A stretch of DNA of 64,000 nucleotides from assembly GCF_003940805.1 (NCBI RefSeq), contig NZ_CP034328.1, positions 930,001-994,000 of the forward strand, given 5' to 3'. Shown in pieces: positions 38,734 to 47,426 of the stretch (positions are counted from its first letter, which is position 1; each line of letters begins with the position of its first letter). A program made the translations under genes and the position numbers. The DNA comes from Tabrizicola piscis (GTDB lineage Bacteria; Pseudomonadota; Alphaproteobacteria; Rhodobacterales; Rhodobacteraceae). The notes under the pieces were generated by a model. That model was not told where the DNA came from and searched no databases. It worked only from the letters and a program-made list of their open reading frames with translations.

Positions 38734-39209
38734 GCTGTATCAACCCGTTTGCGAAAAACCTGTCACCACCGGAGCGCCGCATAAGAAGTTGGAAACGAAG
38801 TCACACCACCAACCAAACCCACCCTCCGGTCGAGACTTCCTGCGAGCAGTCCGCAAATGCTGTGGCCCCGCATTTCGCAAACCGGACAGCTGCGCCAAAA
38901 ATCCCTGCCGCCCGAAGCAATGAGCAATCAGAACGACAGGTTCAGCGCAGCATGCGAAAATCGCAATCATTAAATTTCAGATGTATCTGGCATCAGCCAA
39001 GTCAAGGCGCGCTATTGCCTGCGTTCGACTTGGGGTTTCACCCACAAGGCAACGTGGCCTGACATTGCGATGCGAAAGACCCGTTTCGCGTAACGACCCA
39101 TTTCGCATAGCGGATAGTGGCCATCCCAACGCTCCCATAGGCTTTCCGGCAGGTCGGCGGGCATTGCCCGTGTCCACGCAGGAAATCGATCAACATGGGA
39201 GGCCTGAAG
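38734..39209. other. 476-base intergenic region with repeats near its right end
   Basis: No convincing gene. It holds the AraC promoter at its left end, an AT-richer stretch near 38960-38995, and the GACCCRTTTCGC direct repeats at 39078-39106 with overlapping inverted arms. Confidence 0.5.
39078..39106. repeat. Direct repeats GACCCRTTTCGC with 17-base period
   Basis: gacccgtttcgc (39078-39089) and gacccatttcgc (39095-39106). In addition atgcgaaa (39070-39077) can pair with tttcgcat (39101-39108), and its inner gcgaaa with tttcgc (39084-39089), so two alternative stems are possible. It lies about 100-130 bases upstream of the secreted-protein gene: possible operator or leader RNA. Confidence 0.45.
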
Positions 39210-39743
39210 ATGAAACACGCAATCATGTGGCTCGGAGCAGCCGCGACCTGTCTTCACCTGTCCGCGGCCCCGGCTGCGGCCGAGATGAGCCATGACGAAA
39301 AGGTGGCGGCGGCGGCGGCACTGCTCGGCCTTGCGGCGGTCCTTCACAACAAGCACCACTACAGGGGAGGGTACGAGCCTGCCAGCGGCAGCCACGCCGC
39401 CGACTTCGAGACCTGCTACCGCGACGGATTGCATGGCTACGATTACACGGAAAGCTCCCGCGACTGTGCCGAAGGCTGGCAGGCGGGCAATGCGGAACGT
39501 GAAAACAGCGTCGCCCATCGTCGGACTGCGGCAAGCGACCGGGCGCCGCCGATGGCGATCAGGGGCTGCACCGATCTGGTGGCCACCAACTTCGACGTCA
39601 GTTCCCACCATGTGCACATCATCAAATCCCGATCCCCCGGCAAGCACGAATGGGAAATCGAGGCTGCAGTCGGGCATGAGCACATGGTCTGTACCATGCG
39701 CGACAGCGGCGAGGTGATCTCGGCCCGCGGCGGTCGACTGTAG
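39210..39743 (+). CDS. Secreted hypothetical protein
   Basis: 177 aa from ATG 39210, behind gggaggcctgaag; an ATG 15 bases upstream precedes that site. Signal peptide ending near [10 protein letters not shown] short hydrophobic segment ([15 protein letters not shown]) may be a second membrane anchor. The middle part ([25 protein letters not shown]) resembles the YARHG/Cys-pair style of small alphaproteobacterial envelope proteins. The C-terminal domain carries HHVHIIKSR and CTMRDSGEV. Function unknown. Confidence 0.7.
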
Positions 39744-39825: not shown

Positions 39826-40515
39826 ATGTTGCGACCTCTTGCTGCCGAAGCCTTCGGCACCTTCTGGCTGGTATTTGGCGGATGCGGCAGCGCCGTCCTT
39901 GCCGCGGCCTTTCCGGATGTGGGGATCGGCCTGCTCGGCGTCTCGCTGGCCTTTGGCCTGACGGTCCTGACCATGGCCTATGCCGTCGGCGGCATCTCGG
40001 GCGGACACTTCAACCCGGCGGTCAGCCTCGGTCTGGCGCTGGCCGGCCGGTTCGAGATGCGCAATCTGATCCCCTACTGGGTTGCGCAGGTGGTCGGCGC
40101 AGTGGCGGCTGCAGTGGTCCTGTATGTCATCGTCTCGGGCAAGGCGGATTTTGCCGGCGTGGGCGGATTTGCGTCGAACGGCTACGGCGCGGCCTCGCCG
40201 GGTGGGTTCAACCTGACCTCGGCGCTGGTGATCGAAGTCGTGCTGACCGCCTTCTTCCTGATCGTGATCCTTGGGGCCACGGCAAAAGGCGTACCCGCAG
40301 GCTTTGCCCCCATCGCCATCGGGCTGTGCCTGACGCTGATCCACCTTGTCTCGATCCCGGTGACCAACACCTCGGTCAATCCGGCGCGGTCCACCGGGGT
40401 GGCGCTTTTTGCCGATGGGCCGGCCCTTGCACAGCTTTGGCTGTTCTGGATCGCCCCCTTGGCCGGGGCCGCGCTTGGTGCCGTCCTGTGGCGCGCGCTC
40501 TTTGCTGATGACTAA
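39826..40515 (+). CDS. aqpZ: Aquaporin Z
   Basis: 229 aa, six membrane helices. Both half-helix signatures are present: HFNPAVS (NPA 63-65) and TSVNPARS (NPA 185-187), with the selectivity-filter Arg at 188 and His at 173, matching water-selective AqpZ rather than glycerol facilitators. It conducts water across the inner membrane. The following exported-phosphatase-like gene starts 28 bases after its stop, so co-transcription is possible. Confidence 0.95.
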
Positions 40516-40543: not shown

Positions 40544-41203
40544 ATGCAGTCAGCCGGGCTTTGGGCGCTTCTGTCAGGCCTTTTCTTGTTGTGCAGCATG
40601 TCCCTGGCCCATGCCGAAGGCTATACCGCGCGCGATGGTGGCCCCAGTCAGTCAGAACTGGTCGGGCGCGGGCACTCGCCCGCCGAGGGGATGGCCTTCT
40701 TCCGCCCTGTCCTGTCCGGCGTCCTTTACCGCGCCGGGTTCAGTGGCGGCGACAAGGGGCGCACGGGTCTGTCTGACGCCCAGCGCAAGGCACTGTGCAA
40801 GGCGGGTTTTTCCAGCGCCCGCTATATCGATTTCGGCAAGAACACCGACTATCGCAGCACAAGCTGTGACAGCGGCAAGATGAGCTATGCCCCCGGCAAA
40901 TCGACCCGCCCTGCCGATGTGATGCAAGAGCTTCACGACATCATCAAAACCCCCGGTCGCGGCCCGTTGGTCGTGCATTGCATGTGGGGCGTCCATTCCT
41001 CGGGCGCGATTTCCGCGATGGCACTGGTGCAGTTCTGCGGCTGGAGCGAGGACCGCGCCAAGGCCTACTGGAACGAGGCGCGCAACGGGGCCGAATGCTC
41101 GGATGGCTGCGATGCGTGGATCGACCACCACTTCGACACCTTCGACTTCAATCCATCCCTGACGCTGACCGCCGCCGAAATGGCTGCGATCTGCCCGAAG
41201 TAG
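40544..41203 (+). CDS. Exported protein-tyrosine-phosphatase-like protein with altered P-loop
   Basis: 219 aa from ATG 40544 (cggagaaaga upstream). Signal peptide ending LAHA/EGY. Dual-specificity-phosphatase-like layout: LSGVLYRAG (~58-65), a helix, then VVHCMWGVHSSG (143-154). The signature HCxxGxxR is recognisable with C146 present, but the position of the invariant Arg is S152. This predicts weak, different or no phosphatase activity. Several Cys (85, 108, 165, 184, 188 region) could form disulfides in the periplasm. It precedes the kinase-like and metallophosphoesterase genes. Confidence 0.72.
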   Translation: MQSAGLWALLSGLFLLCSMSLAHAEGYTARDGGPSQSELVGRGHSPAEGMAFFRPVLSGVLYRAGFSGGDKGRTGLSDAQRKALCKAGFSSARYIDFGKNTDYRSTSCDSGKMSYAPGKSTRPADVMQELHDIIKTPGRGPLVVHCMWGVHSSGAISAMALVQFCGWSEDRAKAYWNEARNGAECSDGCDAWIDHHFDTFDFNPSLTLTAAEMAAICPK

Positions 41204-41215
41204 GCGAGGCCCGCG

Positions 41216-42643
41216 ATGCTCCGTTCTGCCGTCCTCACCTGTCTGATGGCCACTGCGTCGCAGGCCAATGACAGTGTGATCGGGCTTGAAACCCTGTTCA
41301 CCAGCCCAAACGGCGTGGTCGAGCGCTGCGTGCGCATCGCCCCGATGCCGGGCGCGGCCTATTCCAGCGACGATCTGGCCCGCGAAGAAGCGTTCTGCGC
41401 GATCGACCTTTACGTACCCACGGTTGCCCTTTGCCCCAAGACGTGGAGCACAAGCCCGGGCATGATCGTCCATGACATCTCGGATGGTCCCTATGCGGGC
41501 GACCGCGCGGCATTCGAGACCCGCGCCTGCCCCGAAGGCAAGGATGCCAAAGGGCTTGGCGCGGGTGAGTTGGCGAAATTCAAGCCCACGATGAACGCCA
41601 AGGGCACGTCTGGAACCTTCTCGGCCTCACCCCTGCTTTACTACCATCTGTCGCGGTTTCTTGGGGCCGAGATCGGCGTTCCGCCCGCCGTCTGGCGCAG
41701 CATGGACCGCGGGATGCACCTTTCCGAAGTCGCCCGCCCAGGCGTCGCCATCTCGGGCCACAGCCATTCGTCAGACATGAACCGTTCTGGCTGGCAGGTT
41801 CTTGTCGCGGCTGATGACAAGCCCGGGGCCTACACACCCACCGATGATCTTTTCACAGCGGACCGCAGCGCCCTTTACGGCGTGATGCTGCGCAGCACCG
41901 GCAGCCGGTACAATTCCGAATTCAACGGCACCCGTGCCTCGGGCTGGGGCGAGGGGCAGAACTATGACTTTCAGGCCACGGCGCCGTTCCTTGCACTGCG
42001 GTCGCAGAAACCCCTGGCCGAAGCTGTTGCCGAGGGTATGGCCGAAGCCCTGAAAGACCCGCAGATCAAGCGCGACATGGGCGACAATACCGACCCGCGC
42101 CAGATCGTCTTCTGGATGGCCGACCTGACTCAGATCGTGCTCCTGGACTTCATTCTCAGCCAGCAGGACCGGGTCGGAAACATCGACTATGTGGAACACT
42201 GGTACTGGGTCGAAAACGGCGCGGTTAAGTCGCGCAAGGCCGTGGCGCACGGGGACGAGACTGAGCCGCTGCCCGCTGGTGCGGTGCGCATCAAACGCAC
42301 CCACCTGAACGACAATGATGCTGGCGGGCGCGTGGAATATGCCAACTTCGCCAAATCCACCGGCATGCTGGATGACATCCACCACTTCCCCGCGGCGACG
42401 TGGCGGCAGCTGATGGCGCTGGAGGCGGACCTGAAGGCCGAAGGGCCGCTCCATGCCTACCTGAAGACCTCGTTCGGGTTGTCGGATCGGCAATTTGCGC
42501 AACTGGTCAAGAACACCCTGCTTGCCGCCGCCACCTTGCGAATGCAGTGTCAGGCGGGCGTGATCCAGTTCGACCTTGACCCGGAGGCCTTCCTCTTGAC
42601 CGGCACCGCCACCCCAGAACCGGTAGATTGCGGGGCACCGTGA
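41216..42643 (+). CDS. Exported FAM20C/four-jointed-like kinase-fold protein
   Basis: 475 aa with a Sec-type signal (about 1-17). Three blocks match the FAM20/FJX kinase pattern: LAKFKPTMN with candidate ATP Lys K123; LLYYHLSRFLGAEIGVPP (140-157), equivalent to the family's helix ending in a VPP turn; and DFILSQQDRVGNID (311-324) with candidate catalytic D318, followed by HLNDNDAGG (363-371) in the place of the metal-binding DNG/DFG-type Asp. Secreted kinases of this type phosphorylate proteins or glycans outside the cytoplasm. Function here is inferred. Overlaps the metallophosphoesterase gene by 4 bases. Confidence 0.65.
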   Translation: MLRSAVLTCLMATASQANDSVIGLETLFTSPNGVVERCVRIAPMPGAAYSSDDLAREEAFCAIDLYVPTVALCPKTWSTSPGMIVHDISDGPYAGDRAAFETRACPEGKDAKGLGAGELAKFKPTMNAKGTSGTFSASPLLYYHLSRFLGAEIGVPPAVWRSMDRGMHLSEVARPGVAISGHSHSSDMNRSGWQVLVAADDKPGAYTPTDDLFTADRSALYGVMLRSTGSRYNSEFNGTRASGWGEGQNYDFQATAPFLALRSQKPLAEAVAEGMAEALKDPQIKRDMGDNTDPRQIVFWMADLTQIVLLDFILSQQDRVGNIDYVEHWYWVENGAVKSRKAVAHGDETEPLPAGAVRIKRTHLNDNDAGGRVEYANFAKSTGMLDDIHHFPAATWRQLMALEADLKAEGPLHAYLKTSFGLSDRQFAQLVKNTLLAAATLRMQCQAGVIQFDLDPEAFLLTGTATPEPVDCGAP

Positions 42644-43584
42644 GGCTGGCCCTGCTGCTGCTGCTGTGGCTGGCCGGCCCGGGACAGGCAGAGCCGCTGA
42701 AGATTGCCGTCATCTCGGACCTGAACGGCAGTTATGGGTCTACCGACTATGGTGCCGCGGTCACGGGTGGCGTGGCCGCGATCATCGCCCGCCGCCCGGA
42801 TCTGGTGATCAGCACCGGCGACATGGTCGCCGGACAGCGCGGCAGCCCGAAGCTGACGGAAGGTGAACTGGCCGCGATGTGGGCCAGCTTTCACGCCGCC
42901 GTCAGCGACCCCCTTGCGCAAGCGGGCCTGCCGCTGCTGGTCACACCGGGCAACCATGATGCCTCGGCCTATCCCGGGTTCGAGGCTGAGCGTGTGGCGT
43001 TTGCAGCCGCATGGTCCGGCCGGGTGCCCGACCTGACCGCGATCGACATCAAGGACTGGCCATTTCGGAGTGCCGTATCCCTGCGCGGCGTGCTGCTGGT
43101 CGGCATGGATGCCACAAGGTCCGGCCCCCTTGCCGAAGCCGACATGGACTGGCTCCGCCGCATCCTTGCCGACGAAGGCCCGCGCCATGACAGTGTGGTC
43201 CTTTACGGCCATCTCCCGCTGATGCCGATCAGCCAGGGCCGAGAGGGCGATGTGCTGGCCGACCCTGCCCTGTTCGATCTGGCCAAGGCTGCGGGCGTCG
43301 ACCTTTGGCTGTCCGGCCACCAGCATGCCTTCTACAGCGGCACGGCGGGCGGTATCCTGTTCGTCGCGCAAGGCGCGCTTGGCAACGGGCCGCGCAAGCT
43401 GATCGGCCAGGGGGAGACCAGCCCGCAGACCGTCACCTGGATCGAGATCGGCGATGACGGCACGGTCACTGTTTCCGCCTACCCGGCCCCCGACTTTGAA
43501 GAAGCCCTGCCACATGACCACCTGCCACCCAGCCTGGGAAGCGGGCCGTTCAAACTGGCCCGGCAGTTTGCCGGGGCTGACTGA
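42640..43584 (+). CDS. Exported calcineurin-like metallophosphoesterase
   Basis: 314 aa from GTG 42640 in a GTGA overlap with the kinase-like gene. Signal VRLALLLLLWLAGPGQA. Metal-site motifs in order: SDLNG (27-29; Asn in place of the usual His of DxH), STGDMV (D61), PGNHD (105-107), YGHLPL and SGHQHAF. Such enzymes use a two-metal centre to hydrolyse phosphomonoesters or diesters. Translational coupling with the exported kinase-like protein suggests the pair add and remove phosphate on a periplasmic target. Confidence 0.82.
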   Translation: MRLALLLLLWLAGPGQAEPLKIAVISDLNGSYGSTDYGAAVTGGVAAIIARRPDLVISTGDMVAGQRGSPKLTEGELAAMWASFHAAVSDPLAQAGLPLLVTPGNHDASAYPGFEAERVAFAAAWSGRVPDLTAIDIKDWPFRSAVSLRGVLLVGMDATRSGPLAEADMDWLRRILADEGPRHDSVVLYGHLPLMPISQGREGDVLADPALFDLAKAAGVDLWLSGHQHAFYSGTAGGILFVAQGALGNGPRKLIGQGETSPQTVTWIEIGDDGTVTVSAYPAPDFEEALPHDHLPPSLGSGPFKLARQFAGAD

Positions 43585-43603: not shown

Positions 43604-44389
43604 TCAGGCTTCCGGATGCACGTGGGTCTGGCCGATATTCCGCATCAGCCATAGTCCGTAAATCCCGTTCGGCAGCACCAGAAGGACCGGTATCAGCTGC
43701 ATAAGCCCCGATGGGTCAGGAACCGTGGCCGCTTCGCTGGGCAGGTTGCCATGGGACATGTTGTGGGTCGCGCCGCTCAAGGTAAAGGTGGCGAAGTCCC
43801 AAAGGGCATGGACAGCGATCGGCAGCCAGAGCGACCCTGACCGCAGCCGCAGCGCAATGAACATCAGCCCGGACAGGAACGCGGCCGTAGACTGGATCAG
43901 CGCCGCCTTCAGATCGCCGGTGACAAAGACATTCATGCTGTGCATGGCACCAAAGACGACCGAGGTCAGCAACACCGCAGGCCAGATCGAAACGCTGTGC
44001 CGAAACGCCTGCAAGACCGCGCCGCGCAGCATCAGTTCCTCGGAAAACCCGACGAAAAGGCAGTTGATCAGCACGAAGAACAGGATCGTCGCGGGCGGCA
44101 GGCCAAGGACGACAGCAAAGGCCAGCGCCCCAAGAATGTACACCATCGGCAGCCAGGCGAGGCGCCCGTCACGCAAGCCGAAGCCACGGTCAAGCCCGAC
44201 ATCGTTCCAGCCTTGCCAAAGACAGACCGACAGGATGAACGCCCCGGCAAGGAACCATGTCCAGCCGATGCCCCGGGAGATCATCTCTTGCAAGCTGACG
44301 TCGCCCGCGGTGAAAAGTTTGCCGACAAAGACGGTAATCACGATCCAGACCACAAAGGCACCAAGCGCAATCGCCAGACGTTTGTTCAT
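43604..44389 (-). CDS. CPBP-family intramembrane metalloprotease
   Basis: 261 aa from the Met at 44389 (ggag 6 bases upstream); an ATG two codons earlier is the alternative. Multi-pass membrane protein with the CAAX-protease/bacteriocin-processing signatures: FSEELMLRG (Glu pair 117-118, Arg 122), VFGAMHSM (His 150) and a later HALWDF. It cleaves or processes membrane substrates, or provides bacteriocin self-immunity in some bacteria; no bacteriocin gene is seen. Convergent with the metallophosphoesterase gene. Confidence 0.87.
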   Translation of the reverse strand: MNKRLAIALGAFVVWIVITVFVGKLFTAGDVSLQEMISRGIGWTWFLAGAFILSVCLWQGWNDVGLDRGFGLRDGRLAWLPMVYILGALAFAVVLGLPPATILFFVLINCLFVGFSEELMLRGAVLQAFRHSVSIWPAVLLTSVVFGAMHSMNVFVTGDLKAALIQSTAAFLSGLMFIALRLRSGSLWLPIAVHALWDFATFTLSGATHNMSHGNLPSEAATVPDPSGLMQLIPVLLVLPNGIYGLWLMRNIGQTHVHPEA

Positions 44390-44610
44390 CTGCATCTCCA
44401 ATGTTGCACCGGCCGTGGCTGCCTTGACGTGCTGATCCCAGAGGACGGCTTTCATCGCCCGCCCAACCCCAGCCTAGCCCCTGCAACAGGGTACACTATC
44501 CGCAACACGAAATCTGGGGCCCGGCAGGCCCATATCGACCAGTCGCGCCGTCGACAACCGCCCGCAGGCCACCTAGACTCTGGCCCCATGCAGCCAAGGG
44601 GAGCGACGGG

Positions 44611-45711
44611 ATGCAGCACGACCCTGCGGAGCACGCGGCGCCCTTGGGTCAGGGCTTCATGATGGCCGTCGTGACGACCGGTACTGGTGGCTATGACCGG
44701 CTTGACTACCGGCAGGTCCCTGTCCCGGTGCCGGGTCCGGGTGAGGTTTTGCTGGCCGTCGGCGCTGCGGGGATAAACAACACCGACATCAACACCCGGC
44801 TTGGCTGGTATGCCGCGTCAGTGAAGGATGGCACCGGCGCCACGTCAATTACGGACGATCGGCAGGACGGCGGCTGGAACGGATCGGTTCCGTTTCCTCT
44901 GATCCAGGGTGCCGACTGTTGCGCGCGCGTGGTGTCCGTGGGGCCGGGCGGCGACCATGGTCGTATCGGTCAGCGGGTTCTCGTCCGGTCCTGCATGCGC
45001 AAGTCAGGGTTTGACAGCATGGATACCGTCTGGCTTGGGACCGACTTTGCCGGGGCCTTCGCGCAATATGTCACAGTCCCCGAAAGCGAGGCCTTTGCCG
45101 TAAACTGCGACTGGAGCGATGCCGAACTGGCCACCATCCCCTGCGCCTATGGCACCGCCGAGAACATGGTGCATCGCGCCGGTGTAAGGCGTGGCGACCG
45201 GGTTCTGGTCCCCGGCGCGTCGGGGGGCGTTGGGTCGGCGCTGGTGCAGCTTCTGCGGCGCCGGGGGGCCGAGGTGATCGCCATCACCAGCCCATCGAAA
45301 CAAGCGCAGATCGCGGCGCTTGGCGCATCGCGTGTCCTTGGTCGCGACGACGATCCGGGTGCGATCCTTGGGGCTGAAAGCGTCGACGTCGTGATCGACA
45401 ACGTGGGCGGGGCTGGCTTTGGCCCGATGCTGAAGGTGCTGAAGCGCGGCGGGCGCTATGTGTCGTCGGGGGCTATCGCAGGGCCGGTTGTCGAGCTGGA
45501 TATGCGCGACATGTATCTGAAGGACATCACGATGGTCGGCTGCACAGCATGGGATGCCCCGGTTTTCCCCAACCTGATTTCGTACATCGAAAGGGGCGAG
45601 ATCCGGCCGTTGCTGGCGGCCACCTTTCCGCTTGACCAGATCGCCCAAGCGCAGCGGGTGTTTCAGGACAAGCACCACATCGGAAAGATCGTCCTGATAC
45701 CGCCGCCGTGA
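44611..45711 (+). CDS. MDR-family alcohol dehydrogenase / quinone oxidoreductase-like
   Basis: 366 aa; ATG behind gggagcgacggg. GroES-like N-domain (VPVPVPGPGEVLLAVGAAGINNTD) and Rossmann domain VPGASGGVGSALVQLL (NADPH-type GxGxxG variant). The catalytic-zinc cysteine motif of classical ADHs is replaced by INNTDINTRLG, so this is probably a zinc-free member, such as a quinone or enoyl reductase relative. Substrate unknown; no operon partners. Confidence 0.88.
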   Translation: MQHDPAEHAAPLGQGFMMAVVTTGTGGYDRLDYRQVPVPVPGPGEVLLAVGAAGINNTDINTRLGWYAASVKDGTGATSITDDRQDGGWNGSVPFPLIQGADCCARVVSVGPGGDHGRIGQRVLVRSCMRKSGFDSMDTVWLGTDFAGAFAQYVTVPESEAFAVNCDWSDAELATIPCAYGTAENMVHRAGVRRGDRVLVPGASGGVGSALVQLLRRRGAEVIAITSPSKQAQIAALGASRVLGRDDDPGAILGAESVDVVIDNVGGAGFGPMLKVLKRGGRYVSSGAIAGPVVELDMRDMYLKDITMVGCTAWDAPVFPNLISYIERGEIRPLLAATFPLDQIAQAQRVFQDKHHIGKIVLIPPP

Positions 45712-45883
45712 TCCCTCCCCTGCCCTGACCGCTCTAAGCGCCCCTGCTGCAGGGTCGCAGTCGCATCACGGCTCTCCTCCTTTCCGCCGGTGCCAAGGTC
45801 CGAGCCTACCGGGAACTTTGCGGCGGTACGGGTGCCACGCGGGGTTGGGGCGCGGCAGCGCAGGGGCCTGACATTGCAGGACG

Positions 45884-45897
45884 TTGTTCCAGCACAA
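45884..45897. promoter_or_regulatory. NnrR/Dnr box TTGTTCCAGCACAA
   Basis: TTGT-N6-ACAA palindrome 63 bases upstream of the DUF1858 start. The surrounding 20 bases differ from the box at 48415 at only two positions. Likely site for the Crp/Fnr regulator at 47704. Confidence 0.7.
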
Positions 45898-45959
45898 CGA
45901 CCAAGGGGGCGCGGCGGCACAGGATGAAGCTGCGGCACAATCGCCGCAGCGGAGCCACC

Positions 45960-46190
45960 ATGCGCGCGCCAAGATTGGACGACCCCGACCTGTCGCTGCA
46001 CCTGCTGTTTGACCAGTGGCCGCAGACGGCTGCGGTGTTCCTGTCACGCCGCATGTTGTGCTTTGGCTGCCCCATCACCCCGTTTCACACGGTCATCGAC
46101 GCCTGTCTGGAATACGGGTTGGACGAAGCCGAGTTTCGCGCCGAGTTGCGGGCCGCCGCTCTGGGGCACCGCACTGATTGCACGAAGTGA
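45960..46190 (+). CDS. Small DUF1858-type protein
   Basis: 76 aa from ATG 45960 (cggagcc upstream); ATG 45924 is an alternative. Contains RRMLCFGCPI, the conserved CxGC motif of DUF1858 proteins, plus a late Cys. DUF1858 proteins occur near denitrification, hybrid-cluster and nitric-oxide genes and may bind a metal or react with NO; this is not proved. It heads the nnrS unit and has an NNR-type box in its promoter. Confidence 0.82.
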   Translation: MRAPRLDDPDLSLHLLFDQWPQTAAVFLSRRMLCFGCPITPFHTVIDACLEYGLDEAEFRAELRAAALGHRTDCTK

Positions 46191-46232
46191 CCACAGCCCC
46201 CTTGCCGGGCCAGAACTTTGAAAGACCATGCC

Positions 46233-47426
46233 ATGAACCGACCCGTTCGCCCGCCCTTCGCCGGCCCTGCGCTGTTCAGCTACGGGTTCCGGCCGCTGTT
46301 CCTGCTGGCCGGTCTTTGGGCCGTGGTTGTCGTGCCGCTGTGGATGGCGATCCGGTCGGGCGCTGTCACGCTGAACGGTCCGTTTTCGCCGACCGACTGG
46401 CATATCCATGAACTCCTGTTCGGCTATACGTCGGTGGTGATCGCCGGATTTCTGTTCACGGCGATCCCGAACTGGACCGGGCGGATGCCCACGCGCGGCT
46501 GGCCGCTGGTTGCGTTGTCGGTGTTGTGGCTGGCGGGGCGGGTGATAGTCGCGCTTGGGCCGTGGCCGGTCGTGGTCATGCTGGTGGACTGCGCTTTCAT
46601 GGCGGTGATCGGGGCGATGGTCGCGACCGAGATCATCGCCGGGCGAAACTGGGGCAACCTGAAAGTCGTGGGGCCCGTGCTGCTGTATCTGGTGGCCAAT
46701 GTCATCTTTCATCTTGAAGCAATGAGCAGGGGTCAGGCCGATATTGGCCGCAGGTTGGGGTTTGCGACCGTTGCGCTGCTGATCTTGCTGATCGGGGGTC
46801 GGATCCTTCCCAGCTTTACCCGCAACTGGCTGGCCAAGCGCGGGCCGGGCGCACTTCCGGTGCCCTTCGCGCGGTTTGATGCGGGCAGTCTGGTGTTGGC
46901 AGCCCTTGCCTTGACCTGCTGGGTGGTCGCGCCCCAGACGCAGCTTGCCGGGGTCGGGCTGATGCTTGCAGGGGCGCTGCAGCTTGCGCGCCTTCTGCGG
47001 TGGTGTGGGTGGCGAGTCTGGCGCGAGCCGTTGCTTTTGATGCTGCATGTCGCCTTTGCCTTTGTGGCCGCCGGGCTGCTGGGCATCGGGCTGGCAGCCC
47101 TTGGCATCCTGCCAGCCGCCACCGGATTGCATCTTCTGGGCATCGGCGGCATCGGGGGGATGACGCTTGCGGTGATGATGCGGGCGTCGCTTGGCCATAC
47201 GGGACGCCCGACGGAGGCGGGTCTGGTGCTGGCGCTGGCATTCGGTGCCGTGGTGCTGGCGGCTGGAGTGCGGGCCATGTCCCCCGAAGCGTCTGGGCTA
47301 TGGACTGCAGCTGCCTTCTGGACGTTTGGCTTTATCCTGTTCCTCTGGCATTTTGCCCCGATCCTTGCCTGGCCGAACCCGGCCCGCCGCAAGCCCAACG
47401 CCGCCCCGTCAACCGCCCGCACGTGA
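46233..47426 (+). CDS. nnrS: NnrS-family membrane protein
   Basis: 397 aa with about twelve hydrophobic helices. The start sequence PFAGPALFSYGFRPLFLLAGLWA, HIHELLFGYTSVVIAGFLFTA and HLLGIGGIGGMTLAVMMRASLGHTG are typical of NnrS, a haem- and copper-containing membrane protein linked to nitric-oxide tolerance in denitrifiers. Conserved His residues in HEL and HTG are likely metal ligands. Located 42 bases after the DUF1858 gene and regulated with it. Confidence 0.93.
   Translation: MNRPVRPPFAGPALFSYGFRPLFLLAGLWAVVVVPLWMAIRSGAVTLNGPFSPTDWHIHELLFGYTSVVIAGFLFTAIPNWTGRMPTRGWPLVALSVLWLAGRVIVALGPWPVVVMLVDCAFMAVIGAMVATEIIAGRNWGNLKVVGPVLLYLVANVIFHLEAMSRGQADIGRRLGFATVALLILLIGGRILPSFTRNWLAKRGPGALPVPFARFDAGSLVLAALALTCWVVAPQTQLAGVGLMLAGALQLARLLRWCGWRVWREPLLLMLHVAFAFVAAGLLGIGLAALGILPAATGLHLLGIGGIGGMTLAVMMRASLGHTGRPTEAGLVLALAFGAVVLAAGVRAMSPEASGLWTAAAFWTFGFILFLWHFAPILAWPNPARRKPNAAPSTART

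What the first reader, a model, noticed from the sequence alone, without database searches (positions are those of the whole stretch)
40544..43584. Exported phosphatase-like, FAM20C-like kinase and metallophosphoesterase cassette
Three consecutive genes encode proteins with signal peptides: a PTP-like protein, a protein with three blocks matching the FAM20C/four-jointed kinase pattern (FKP, L-RFLG-VPP, DFILSQQDR-GN, HLNDND), and a calcineurin-like phosphoesterase. The last two overlap by 4 bases. Together they could write and erase phosphate on periplasmic proteins or glycans, an activity little known in alphaproteobacteria. The kinase assignment rests on motif reading; the cassette idea is inference from gene order.
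Basis: partly seen in the sequence, partly recalled or inferred. Interest (0 to 1): 0.85.

Follow-up and report, generated by a model that had tools for sequence, protein, structure and literature searches.

The report
Exported Fam20-like bacterial kinase cassette
Three neighbouring genes that travel together in some alphaproteobacteria encode proteins that look exported: one with the fold of the animal Fam20 secretory kinases, one tyrosine-phosphatase look-alike that lacks its key arginine, and one metal-dependent phosphatase, which suggests that these bacteria may phosphorylate molecules outside the cytoplasm.

Summary
In detail: PTP-like gene 40544-41203, kinase-like 41216-42643, metallophosphoesterase 42640-43584 (4-base overlap).

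Kinase reading supported. P0002 has no Pfam or NCBIfam family, but its AlphaFold model (pLDDT 94) matches Fam20: all 28 Foldseek rows with probability >= 0.98 are Fam20 chains, though query TM-scores are only 0.35-0.43. Catalytic Asp, Arg, Asn and Asp-Asn-Asp positions are invariant in two subfamilies 28% identical. The acidic residues that Fam20C needs are mostly absent, so it is no Fam20 ortholog.

The cassette is real: 22 of 30 distinct related loci carry all three genes. The PTP family was found in 15 of 18 kinase genomes and 0 of 23 others.

The "eraser" needs correcting: the PTP-like protein keeps Cys, but Ser or Ala replaces the CX5R Arg in 121 of 121 sequences, so it is probably a non-hydrolysing partner. 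The metallophosphoesterase is the likelier phosphatase.

New: a DUF4956-like family was found only in kinase genomes (12 of 12, biased profile), and three PTP-less loci pair the kinase with a polysaccharide synthase. Best guess: an extracytoplasmic kinase module linked to envelope glycans. Activity, export and phosphate donor are untested.

The parts
40544..41203 (+). Probably exported PTP-superfamily-like protein, predicted pseudophosphatase (P0001, 219 aa); P-loop H145-C146-M-W-G149-V-H151-S152-S153-G154, CX5R Arg position is Ser152
   Evidence: PF00102 E 0.053, below cut-off; Cys146 121/121; Ser 118 and Ala 3 of 121 at the Arg position; best PDB profile hits 2m3v E 0.0044 and TpbA 4r0s E 0.0057
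41216..42643 (+). Probably exported Fam20-fold kinase-like protein (P0002, 475 aa); K123, D318-R319, N322, D366-N367-D368; conserved C38, C61, C73, C105, C445, C472
   Evidence: conservation; AF2 model pLDDT 94.0, pTM 0.92; fold searches
42640..43584 (+). Probably exported calcineurin-like metallophosphoesterase (P0003, 314 aa); GTG start overlapping the kinase stop by 4 bases
   Evidence: PF00149 E 7.9e-16, 59.5 bits against cut-off 21.5; D27, N29, D61, N105, H106, H191, H227, H229 conserved in at least 93% of 32 rows
39195..39743 (+). Protein with signal-like N-terminus and no known domain; a relative lies near the kinase gene in 10 of 30 sequences compared (29 loci and the window); association only, role unknown
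   Evidence: no Pfam family

Best explanation
The three genes form an operon for an extracytoplasmic phosphotransfer module. (1) P0002 is an exported, disulfide-bonded kinase of the Fam20 fold. It would bind nucleotide through Lys123 and use Asp318 as catalytic base, with Asn322 and Asp366 (or Asp368) as metal ligands, without the loop Glu that Fam20C uses. Fold of the model and conservation are shown; export and activity are inferred. (2) P0001 is a TpbA-like PTP domain that keeps the nucleophilic Cys but not the P-loop Arg. It is therefore more likely a phosphate-binding or docking partner (pseudophosphatase) than a phosphatase; this is inferred from a nearly invariant substitution. (3) P0003 is a metallophosphoesterase that would remove the phosphate or recycle a phosphorylated product (inferred). 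The most likely target is a cell-envelope or secreted glycan, or the machinery that makes it. In three Rhodobacteraceae loci without the PTP partner the kinase gene lies close to a deacetylase/GT2 polysaccharide synthase and a DUF3131 protein, and in 17 of 30 loci near a DUF4956-like membrane protein, a domain known beside CotH kinases at Pel exopolysaccharide operons. My own split: exported Fam20-fold protein 0.9; active phosphotransferase 0.7; PTP-like protein non-hydrolysing 0.65; glycan-linked function 0.4.
Against: No activity or export data. The periplasm is not known to hold ATP (general knowledge), and no donor is identified. Acidic residues important in Fam20C are missing: the segment from Lys123 to His144 has an Asp or Glu in 12 of 121 sequences, and in 0 of 121 of the other subfamily. 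Foldseek TM-scores for the 28 Fam20 rows are only 0.35-0.43 on the query, with 10-15% identity in the two fold comparisons. The window's own genome has no DUF4956-like match and, for DUF3131, one match of 28 bits (over the cut-off) in a 2837-aa frame elsewhere, so the glycan link comes from relatives and rests on 3 loci plus a domain of unknown function. DUF3131 also occurs away from the kinase in two other kinase genomes (G708, G917), and its rate in genomes without the kinase was not measured. The VTC polyphosphate polymerase that accompanies CotH and DUF4956 is not associated: 13 of 295 genomes, one shared.
Confidence: 0.5

Rival explanations
1. An exported protein kinase of Fam20C type that phosphorylates Ser, Thr or Tyr on secreted or periplasmic proteins, for instance small exported proteins encoded nearby, with no glycan role.
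For: Fam20C and C. elegans Fam20 are protein kinases and are among the best fold matches. The closest named PDB relative of the PTP-like partner is TpbA, a periplasmic phosphotyrosine phosphatase (PMC2691606 passages). Several recurrent neighbours look exported and have no known function.
Against: The top VIA-align hit is hydra Fam20, described as Fam20B-like, a glycan kinase (PMC5865150 passages), though Z differences among Fam20 hits are small and Foldseek ranks C. elegans Fam20 first. Three PTP-less loci sit at polysaccharide synthase genes. No substrate was identified.
Confidence: 0.3
2. A kinase-fold protein that does another reaction (AMPylation, polyglutamylation or another transfer) or none (pseudokinase), with the pseudophosphatase as scaffold.
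For: Equivalents of Fam20C Glu306 and of the helix-C ion-pair Glu are absent in most sequences. Fam20A is a pseudokinase partly because of a Gln at the first position (PMC5865150 passages). Kinase folds that transfer Glu or AMP are known (reference titles in PMC7948968; their names SidJ and SelO are recalled). The periplasm is not known to hold ATP (general knowledge).
Against: Lys, Asp, Asn and Asp positions are kept in two subfamilies 28% identical, which argues for catalysis rather than a dead fold. A phosphoesterase with conserved ligand positions is encoded in the same operon.
Confidence: 0.2
3. A lipid or phosphoinositide-type kinase of PI4K-II kind acting on the outer leaflet of the inner membrane or on the outer membrane.
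Against: No PI4K-II chain is among the 50 Foldseek rows listed. No lipid-related gene was among the neighbour families that I inspected. Inositol lipids in these bacteria are not evidenced here.
Confidence: 0.07

Closest known systems
Fam20 secretory-pathway kinases (Fam20C protein kinase, Fam20B xylosylkinase, Fam20A pseudokinase)
   Same: Closest fold; FKP lysine, H-L-x-R helix, VPP, LD(F/Y)...DR and HL-x-D-N motifs; signal-like N-terminus and conserved cysteines
   Different: 10-15% identity in the fold comparisons; no PF06702 match in 47 members; Asn four residues after the catalytic Asp where Fam20C has Glu at +5; loop and helix acidic residues mostly missing; bacterial operon with PTP-like and MPP genes
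CotH kinases (spore coat; also beside Pel operons)
   Same: Bacterial relatives of Fam20C (PMC12189002 passages); found with DUF4956 proteins at exopolysaccharide operons (PMC7112168 passages)
   Different: No CotH Pfam match; no polyphosphate polymerase association here; a different, cysteine-conserved family with signal-like N-terminus
Four predicted Legionella kinase families that cluster with FAM20/CotH
   Same: Bacterial families near the FAM20/CotH group in a kinase survey (PMC9758233 passages)
   Different: Not compared here; described there as candidate effectors, possibly lipid-directed
TpbA periplasmic tyrosine phosphatase
   Same: Best named PDB profile match of the PTP-like protein: 4r0s E 0.0057; 2m3v, unnamed in the table but with the same aligned letters, E 0.0044
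   Different: TpbA has HCKHGNNRTG, the window protein HCMWGVHSSG, so the catalytic Arg is Ser
Calcineurin-like metallophosphoesterases (PF00149)
   Same: Over the Pfam cut-off; ligand positions conserved
   Different: Motif I reads D-x-N in place of the usual D-x-H (motif labels recalled)
HipA/HipT and CtkA kinases
   Different: Weaker match than Fam20; no toxin-antitoxin arrangement was seen here

Membership tests
Fam20 kinases | Fam20 fold | tested here: met
Fam20 kinases | Pfam PF06702 (Fam20C) sequence match | tested here: not met
   no match in P0002 or any of 47 members. The genome scan with PF06702 rang in no control and proves nothing
Fam20 kinases | Nucleotide-site Lys (FKP), catalytic Asp-Arg, DFG-like Asp | tested here: met
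   K123 120/121 (one gap), D318, R319, D366 121/121
Fam20 kinases | Catalytic loop Glu (Fam20C Glu306) and helix-C ion-pair Glu | tested here: not met
   segment 123-144 is about 10 residues shorter than in C. elegans Fam20 and has D/E in 12 of 121 (0 of 121 in the second subfamily); motif-level alignment, no coordinates at hand
Fam20 kinases | Phosphotransferase activity on secreted proteins or xylose | not testable with these tools
   Needs biochemistry
CotH kinases | Pfam CotH match | tested here: not met
   none in P0002 at E <= 1, none among 47 members at E <= 10
Protein tyrosine phosphatases / TpbA | CX5R P-loop | tested here: not met
   Cys 121/121, Arg position Ser 118 and Ala 3 of 121; HCx5R in 0 of 121
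Protein tyrosine phosphatases / TpbA | PTP fold | tested here: inconclusive
   PF00102 matched by 20 of 21 members at E <= 1 (best 0.0032); TpbA E 0.0057; the fold prediction did not complete
Calcineurin-like metallophosphoesterases | PF00149 over cut-off and metal ligands | tested here: met
   D-x-N in motif I
DUF4956 (neighbour protein in related loci) | PF16316 match | tested here: inconclusive
   15 of 15 members match at E <= 1, best 1.6e-5; the one member shown singly is below the curated cut-off; 4 of 15 also match DUF456 (best 3.9e-5)
Known anti-phage defence systems | PADLOC-DB model match | tested here: not met
   none for P0001-P0003 and P0124

The most novel reading that the evidence does not exclude
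A previously undescribed extracytoplasmic phosphorylation system in proteobacteria. A Fam20-fold kinase with a rewired active site works outside the cytoplasm on an exopolysaccharide or its exported machinery, usually paired with a pseudophosphatase subunit (as Fam20C is paired with pseudokinase Fam20A) and a metallophosphoesterase eraser, and in many lineages with a DUF4956-like membrane protein that supplies the phosphoryl donor or anchors the complex. It would be an independent counterpart of the CotH-DUF4956-Pel modules.
Probability: 0.25. Interest if true: 0.92.

Novelty: new variant of a known kind. Interest (0 to 1): 0.74.

Why it matters
TpbA is reported to dephosphorylate a membrane protein from the periplasmic side in Pseudomonas (PMC2691606 passages). 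To my knowledge (recalled, not searched) no periplasmic kinase that puts such phosphate there is known, nor its donor. A kinase-fold family with signal-like N-termini that usually travels with a TpbA-like protein gives concrete genes with which to test extracytoplasmic phosphorylation in bacteria. It also places a close Fam20-type fold, called eukaryote- or Metazoa-specific in one kinase network (PMC9758233 passages, which also reports Legionella families near FAM20/CotH), in a patchy bacterial family that neither Pfam nor NCBIfam models cover, and offers a natural PTP-like family with a fixed loss of the P-loop Arg.

Tried and rejected
Sequence-only links from P0002 to known kinases failed: Pfam, NCBIfam and PDB sequence or profile searches (and 130 for P0124) gave nothing significant; the weak StkP and phosphorylase-kinase hits cover only the C-terminal region. 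A VTC polyphosphate polymerase partner was considered because it accompanies CotH and DUF4956; it is not linked (13 of 295 genomes, one shared with the 17 kinase genomes). A second gene with kinase-like motifs beside the Bradyrhizobium-type copy (L058:5176-6339) was compared with the kinase profile: hhalign probability 0.14 percent, so no homology shown; it was not found in the 59 other genomes of that genus searched. Plasmid carriage: no match for P0002 or P0124 in the plasmid collection. Defence system: no PADLOC match. The PF06702 genome scan rang in no control and was discarded.

Counting notes. One search compared 37 loci; seven (L042, L043, L047, L048, L049, L053, L054) were dropped because their contig lengths equal those of loci already held, leaving 30. 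L007 and L008 come from one MAG, L016 and L020 from one strain. Of the 30, 22 have the trio; the other eight are L007 (PTP and kinase, contig ends behind the kinase), L010, L017 and L056 (kinase only), L020 (a 108-residue piece), L055 (kinase and MPP), L057 (decayed kinase and MPP pieces) and L058 (PTP and kinase). The MPP alignment has 32 rows and includes those repeats. The sets of 121 are the query and the listed hits, which are the closest ones (mostly above 57, 65 and 60% identity for kinase, second subfamily and PTP). The DUF4956 profile was built from kinase neighbours, so the 12-of-12 result is biased towards them, and only 7 first-look candidates per genome were scored. The 23 genomes without the kinase are those first listed as misses, not a random draw. 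Paper searches cover open-licence PMC papers only; none of the listed titles concerns this family; of the papers I saw only listings and passages.
Full report
What is there. The three ORFs are at the stated coordinates and overlap as stated. P0003 is a calcineurin-like metallophosphoesterase (PF00149, E 7.9e-16). P0001 has only a sub-threshold match to PF00102 (E 0.053). P0002 matches no Pfam family at E <= 1. None of the 47 members of alignment A2 matches a kinase family in Pfam. NCBIfam gives nothing for P0001 or P0002, PADLOC nothing for the three. All three begin with a signal-like hydrophobic stretch by a crude test.

Where it departs from Fam20. [quoted passage not shown] Fam20A is a pseudokinase partly for lack of the first (PMC5865150, passages). 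Here the Lys-to-helix segment is about ten residues shorter than in C. elegans Fam20 (my count), and it holds an acidic residue in only 12 of 121 sequences and in 0 of 121 of the other subfamily. The classical Asp, Asn, Asp set is kept instead. So it works, if it works, with a differently wired site. Six cysteines are conserved in 117 or more of 121. The copy in L017, a MAG labelled Aquificaceae, lacks both a signal peptide and C38 and C61, as expected if those two form a disulfide in the exported forms (inference). The Bradyrhizobium type has two extra invariant cysteines, C129 before helix C and C351 beside the DND motif, which would be neighbours in a kinase fold (inference).

The PTP-like protein. 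400 relatives at E <= 1e-3, 120 listed; three carry source names such as tyrosine-specific or dual-specificity phosphatase. The best PDB profile matches are 2m3v (E 0.0044) and TpbA 4r0s (E 0.0057), with the same aligned letters. In that alignment the TpbA P-loop HCKHGNNRTG faces HCMWGVHSSG. His145, Cys146, Gly149, Ser153 and Gly154 are invariant in 121 of 121, while the Arg position is Ser in 118 and Ala in 3; none has HCx5R. The distant copy in L058 reads HCWYGLHASG. Such a fixed loss with the rest of the loop kept points to a constrained, probably non-hydrolysing role. Its fold could not be predicted.

The metallophosphoesterase. D27, N29, D61, N105, H106, H191, H227 and H229 are conserved in at least 93% of 32 rows (some rows are repeats of one contig). 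The motif I residue is Asn where His is usual (motif labels recalled). It is the likelier active phosphatase of the trio.

Linkage. Of 30 distinct loci, 22 have all three genes in order. Taking the first possible start codon no more than 30 bases before the previous stop, the gaps run from -26 to 51 bases between PTP and kinase and from -29 to 2 between kinase and MPP, with one of 110. Pairwise distances of the three proteins correlate (r 0.79, 0.57, 0.77 over 253 pairs), as for genes inherited together, though species relatedness alone can give this. The kinase is patchy: 17 of 295 genomes of the window's family, own genome and one decayed copy included; 1 of 289 of the class, the own genome; 2 of 398 of the phylum, own genome included; and 2 of 198 in the family of the Bradyrhizobium-type copy, one of them a weak piece with stops. 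The PTP family was found in 15 of 18 kinase genomes and 0 of 23 others, each time beside the kinase.

Wider neighbourhood. Near the kinase in 17 of the 30 loci is a membrane protein; all 15 members scanned match DUF4956 weakly (best E 1.6e-5). In the 295 genomes it was found at E <= 1e-10 in 12, all of them kinase genomes, with the bias noted under Tried and rejected. A SdiA-regulated/phytase-like propeller protein is near in 12 of the 30. In three intact loci that lack the PTP gene (L010, L055, L056) the kinase lies close to an exported-looking DUF3131 protein and a large protein with polysaccharide deacetylase and GT2 synthase domains (1163 and 1126 aa; Pfam for L010 and L055, tblastn for L056); neither was found at E <= 1e-8 in the other loci held or in the window. 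The fourth kinase-only locus, L017, has neither. DUF3131 matches occur in 5 of 18 kinase genomes, in G708 and G917 away from the kinase. CotH, polyphosphate polymerase and DUF4956 genes lie beside pel genes in streptococci and clostridia (PMC7112168, passages), and TpbA lowers Pel production (PMC2691606, passages). These point to envelope glycans, but the window's genome has no DUF4956-like match and only a 28-bit DUF3131 match in a 2837-residue frame elsewhere.

Mechanism. Shown: gene order, conservation, Fam20 fold of the model, motif residues, loss of the P-loop Arg. Inferred: export, nucleotide use, phosphotransfer, glycan link, partner role of the PTP-like protein, eraser role of the metallophosphoesterase. 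The main obstacle is the donor: Fam20 enzymes work in the Golgi, while the periplasm is not known to hold ATP (general knowledge).

Verdict. This is a family of Fam20-fold proteins in bacteria without a Pfam or NCBIfam model, with a conserved, unusual partner set: a new variant of a known kind.

Noticed in passing
L058:5176-6339: Convergent to the Bradyrhizobium-type kinase gene lies a 387-aa protein with signal-like N-terminus and its own QQWDR...GGN and TDNGG motifs, reminiscent of another kinase-like protein but with no detectable homology to the kinase family.
   Followed up: partly
L017:7980-9347: A MAG labelled Aquificaceae carries a 46% identical kinase-like protein without signal peptide and without two of the conserved cysteines, with no PTP or MPP of the cassette type beside it; the label may be a binning error.
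   Followed up: partly
L057:7933-8979: Decayed remains of the kinase and metallophosphoesterase genes, with stop codons in the kinase, so the module is lost in some lineages.
   Followed up: no
P0124 residues 129 and 351: The Bradyrhizobium-type kinases have two extra invariant cysteines, one before helix C and one next to the DND motif, both absent from P0002.
   Followed up: no
P0096 (601 aa): One kinase relative in the homologue list is longer and carries a precomputed PF01266 domain; possibly a fusion or a gene-calling error.
   Followed up: no
L004, L007, L014 and other loci, within about 9 kb of the kinase gene: Several loci also hold small exported or lipoprotein-like proteins (SH3 domain, Transgly_assoc, unnamed families) that may be substrates or just island cargo.
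   Followed up: partly
window 39826-40515 and 43604-47426: Immediate neighbours in the window are an aquaporin (MIP), a CAAX-type protease, a zinc alcohol dehydrogenase and an NnrS protein; none of these four was among the recurrent neighbour families that I inspected.
   Followed up: partly
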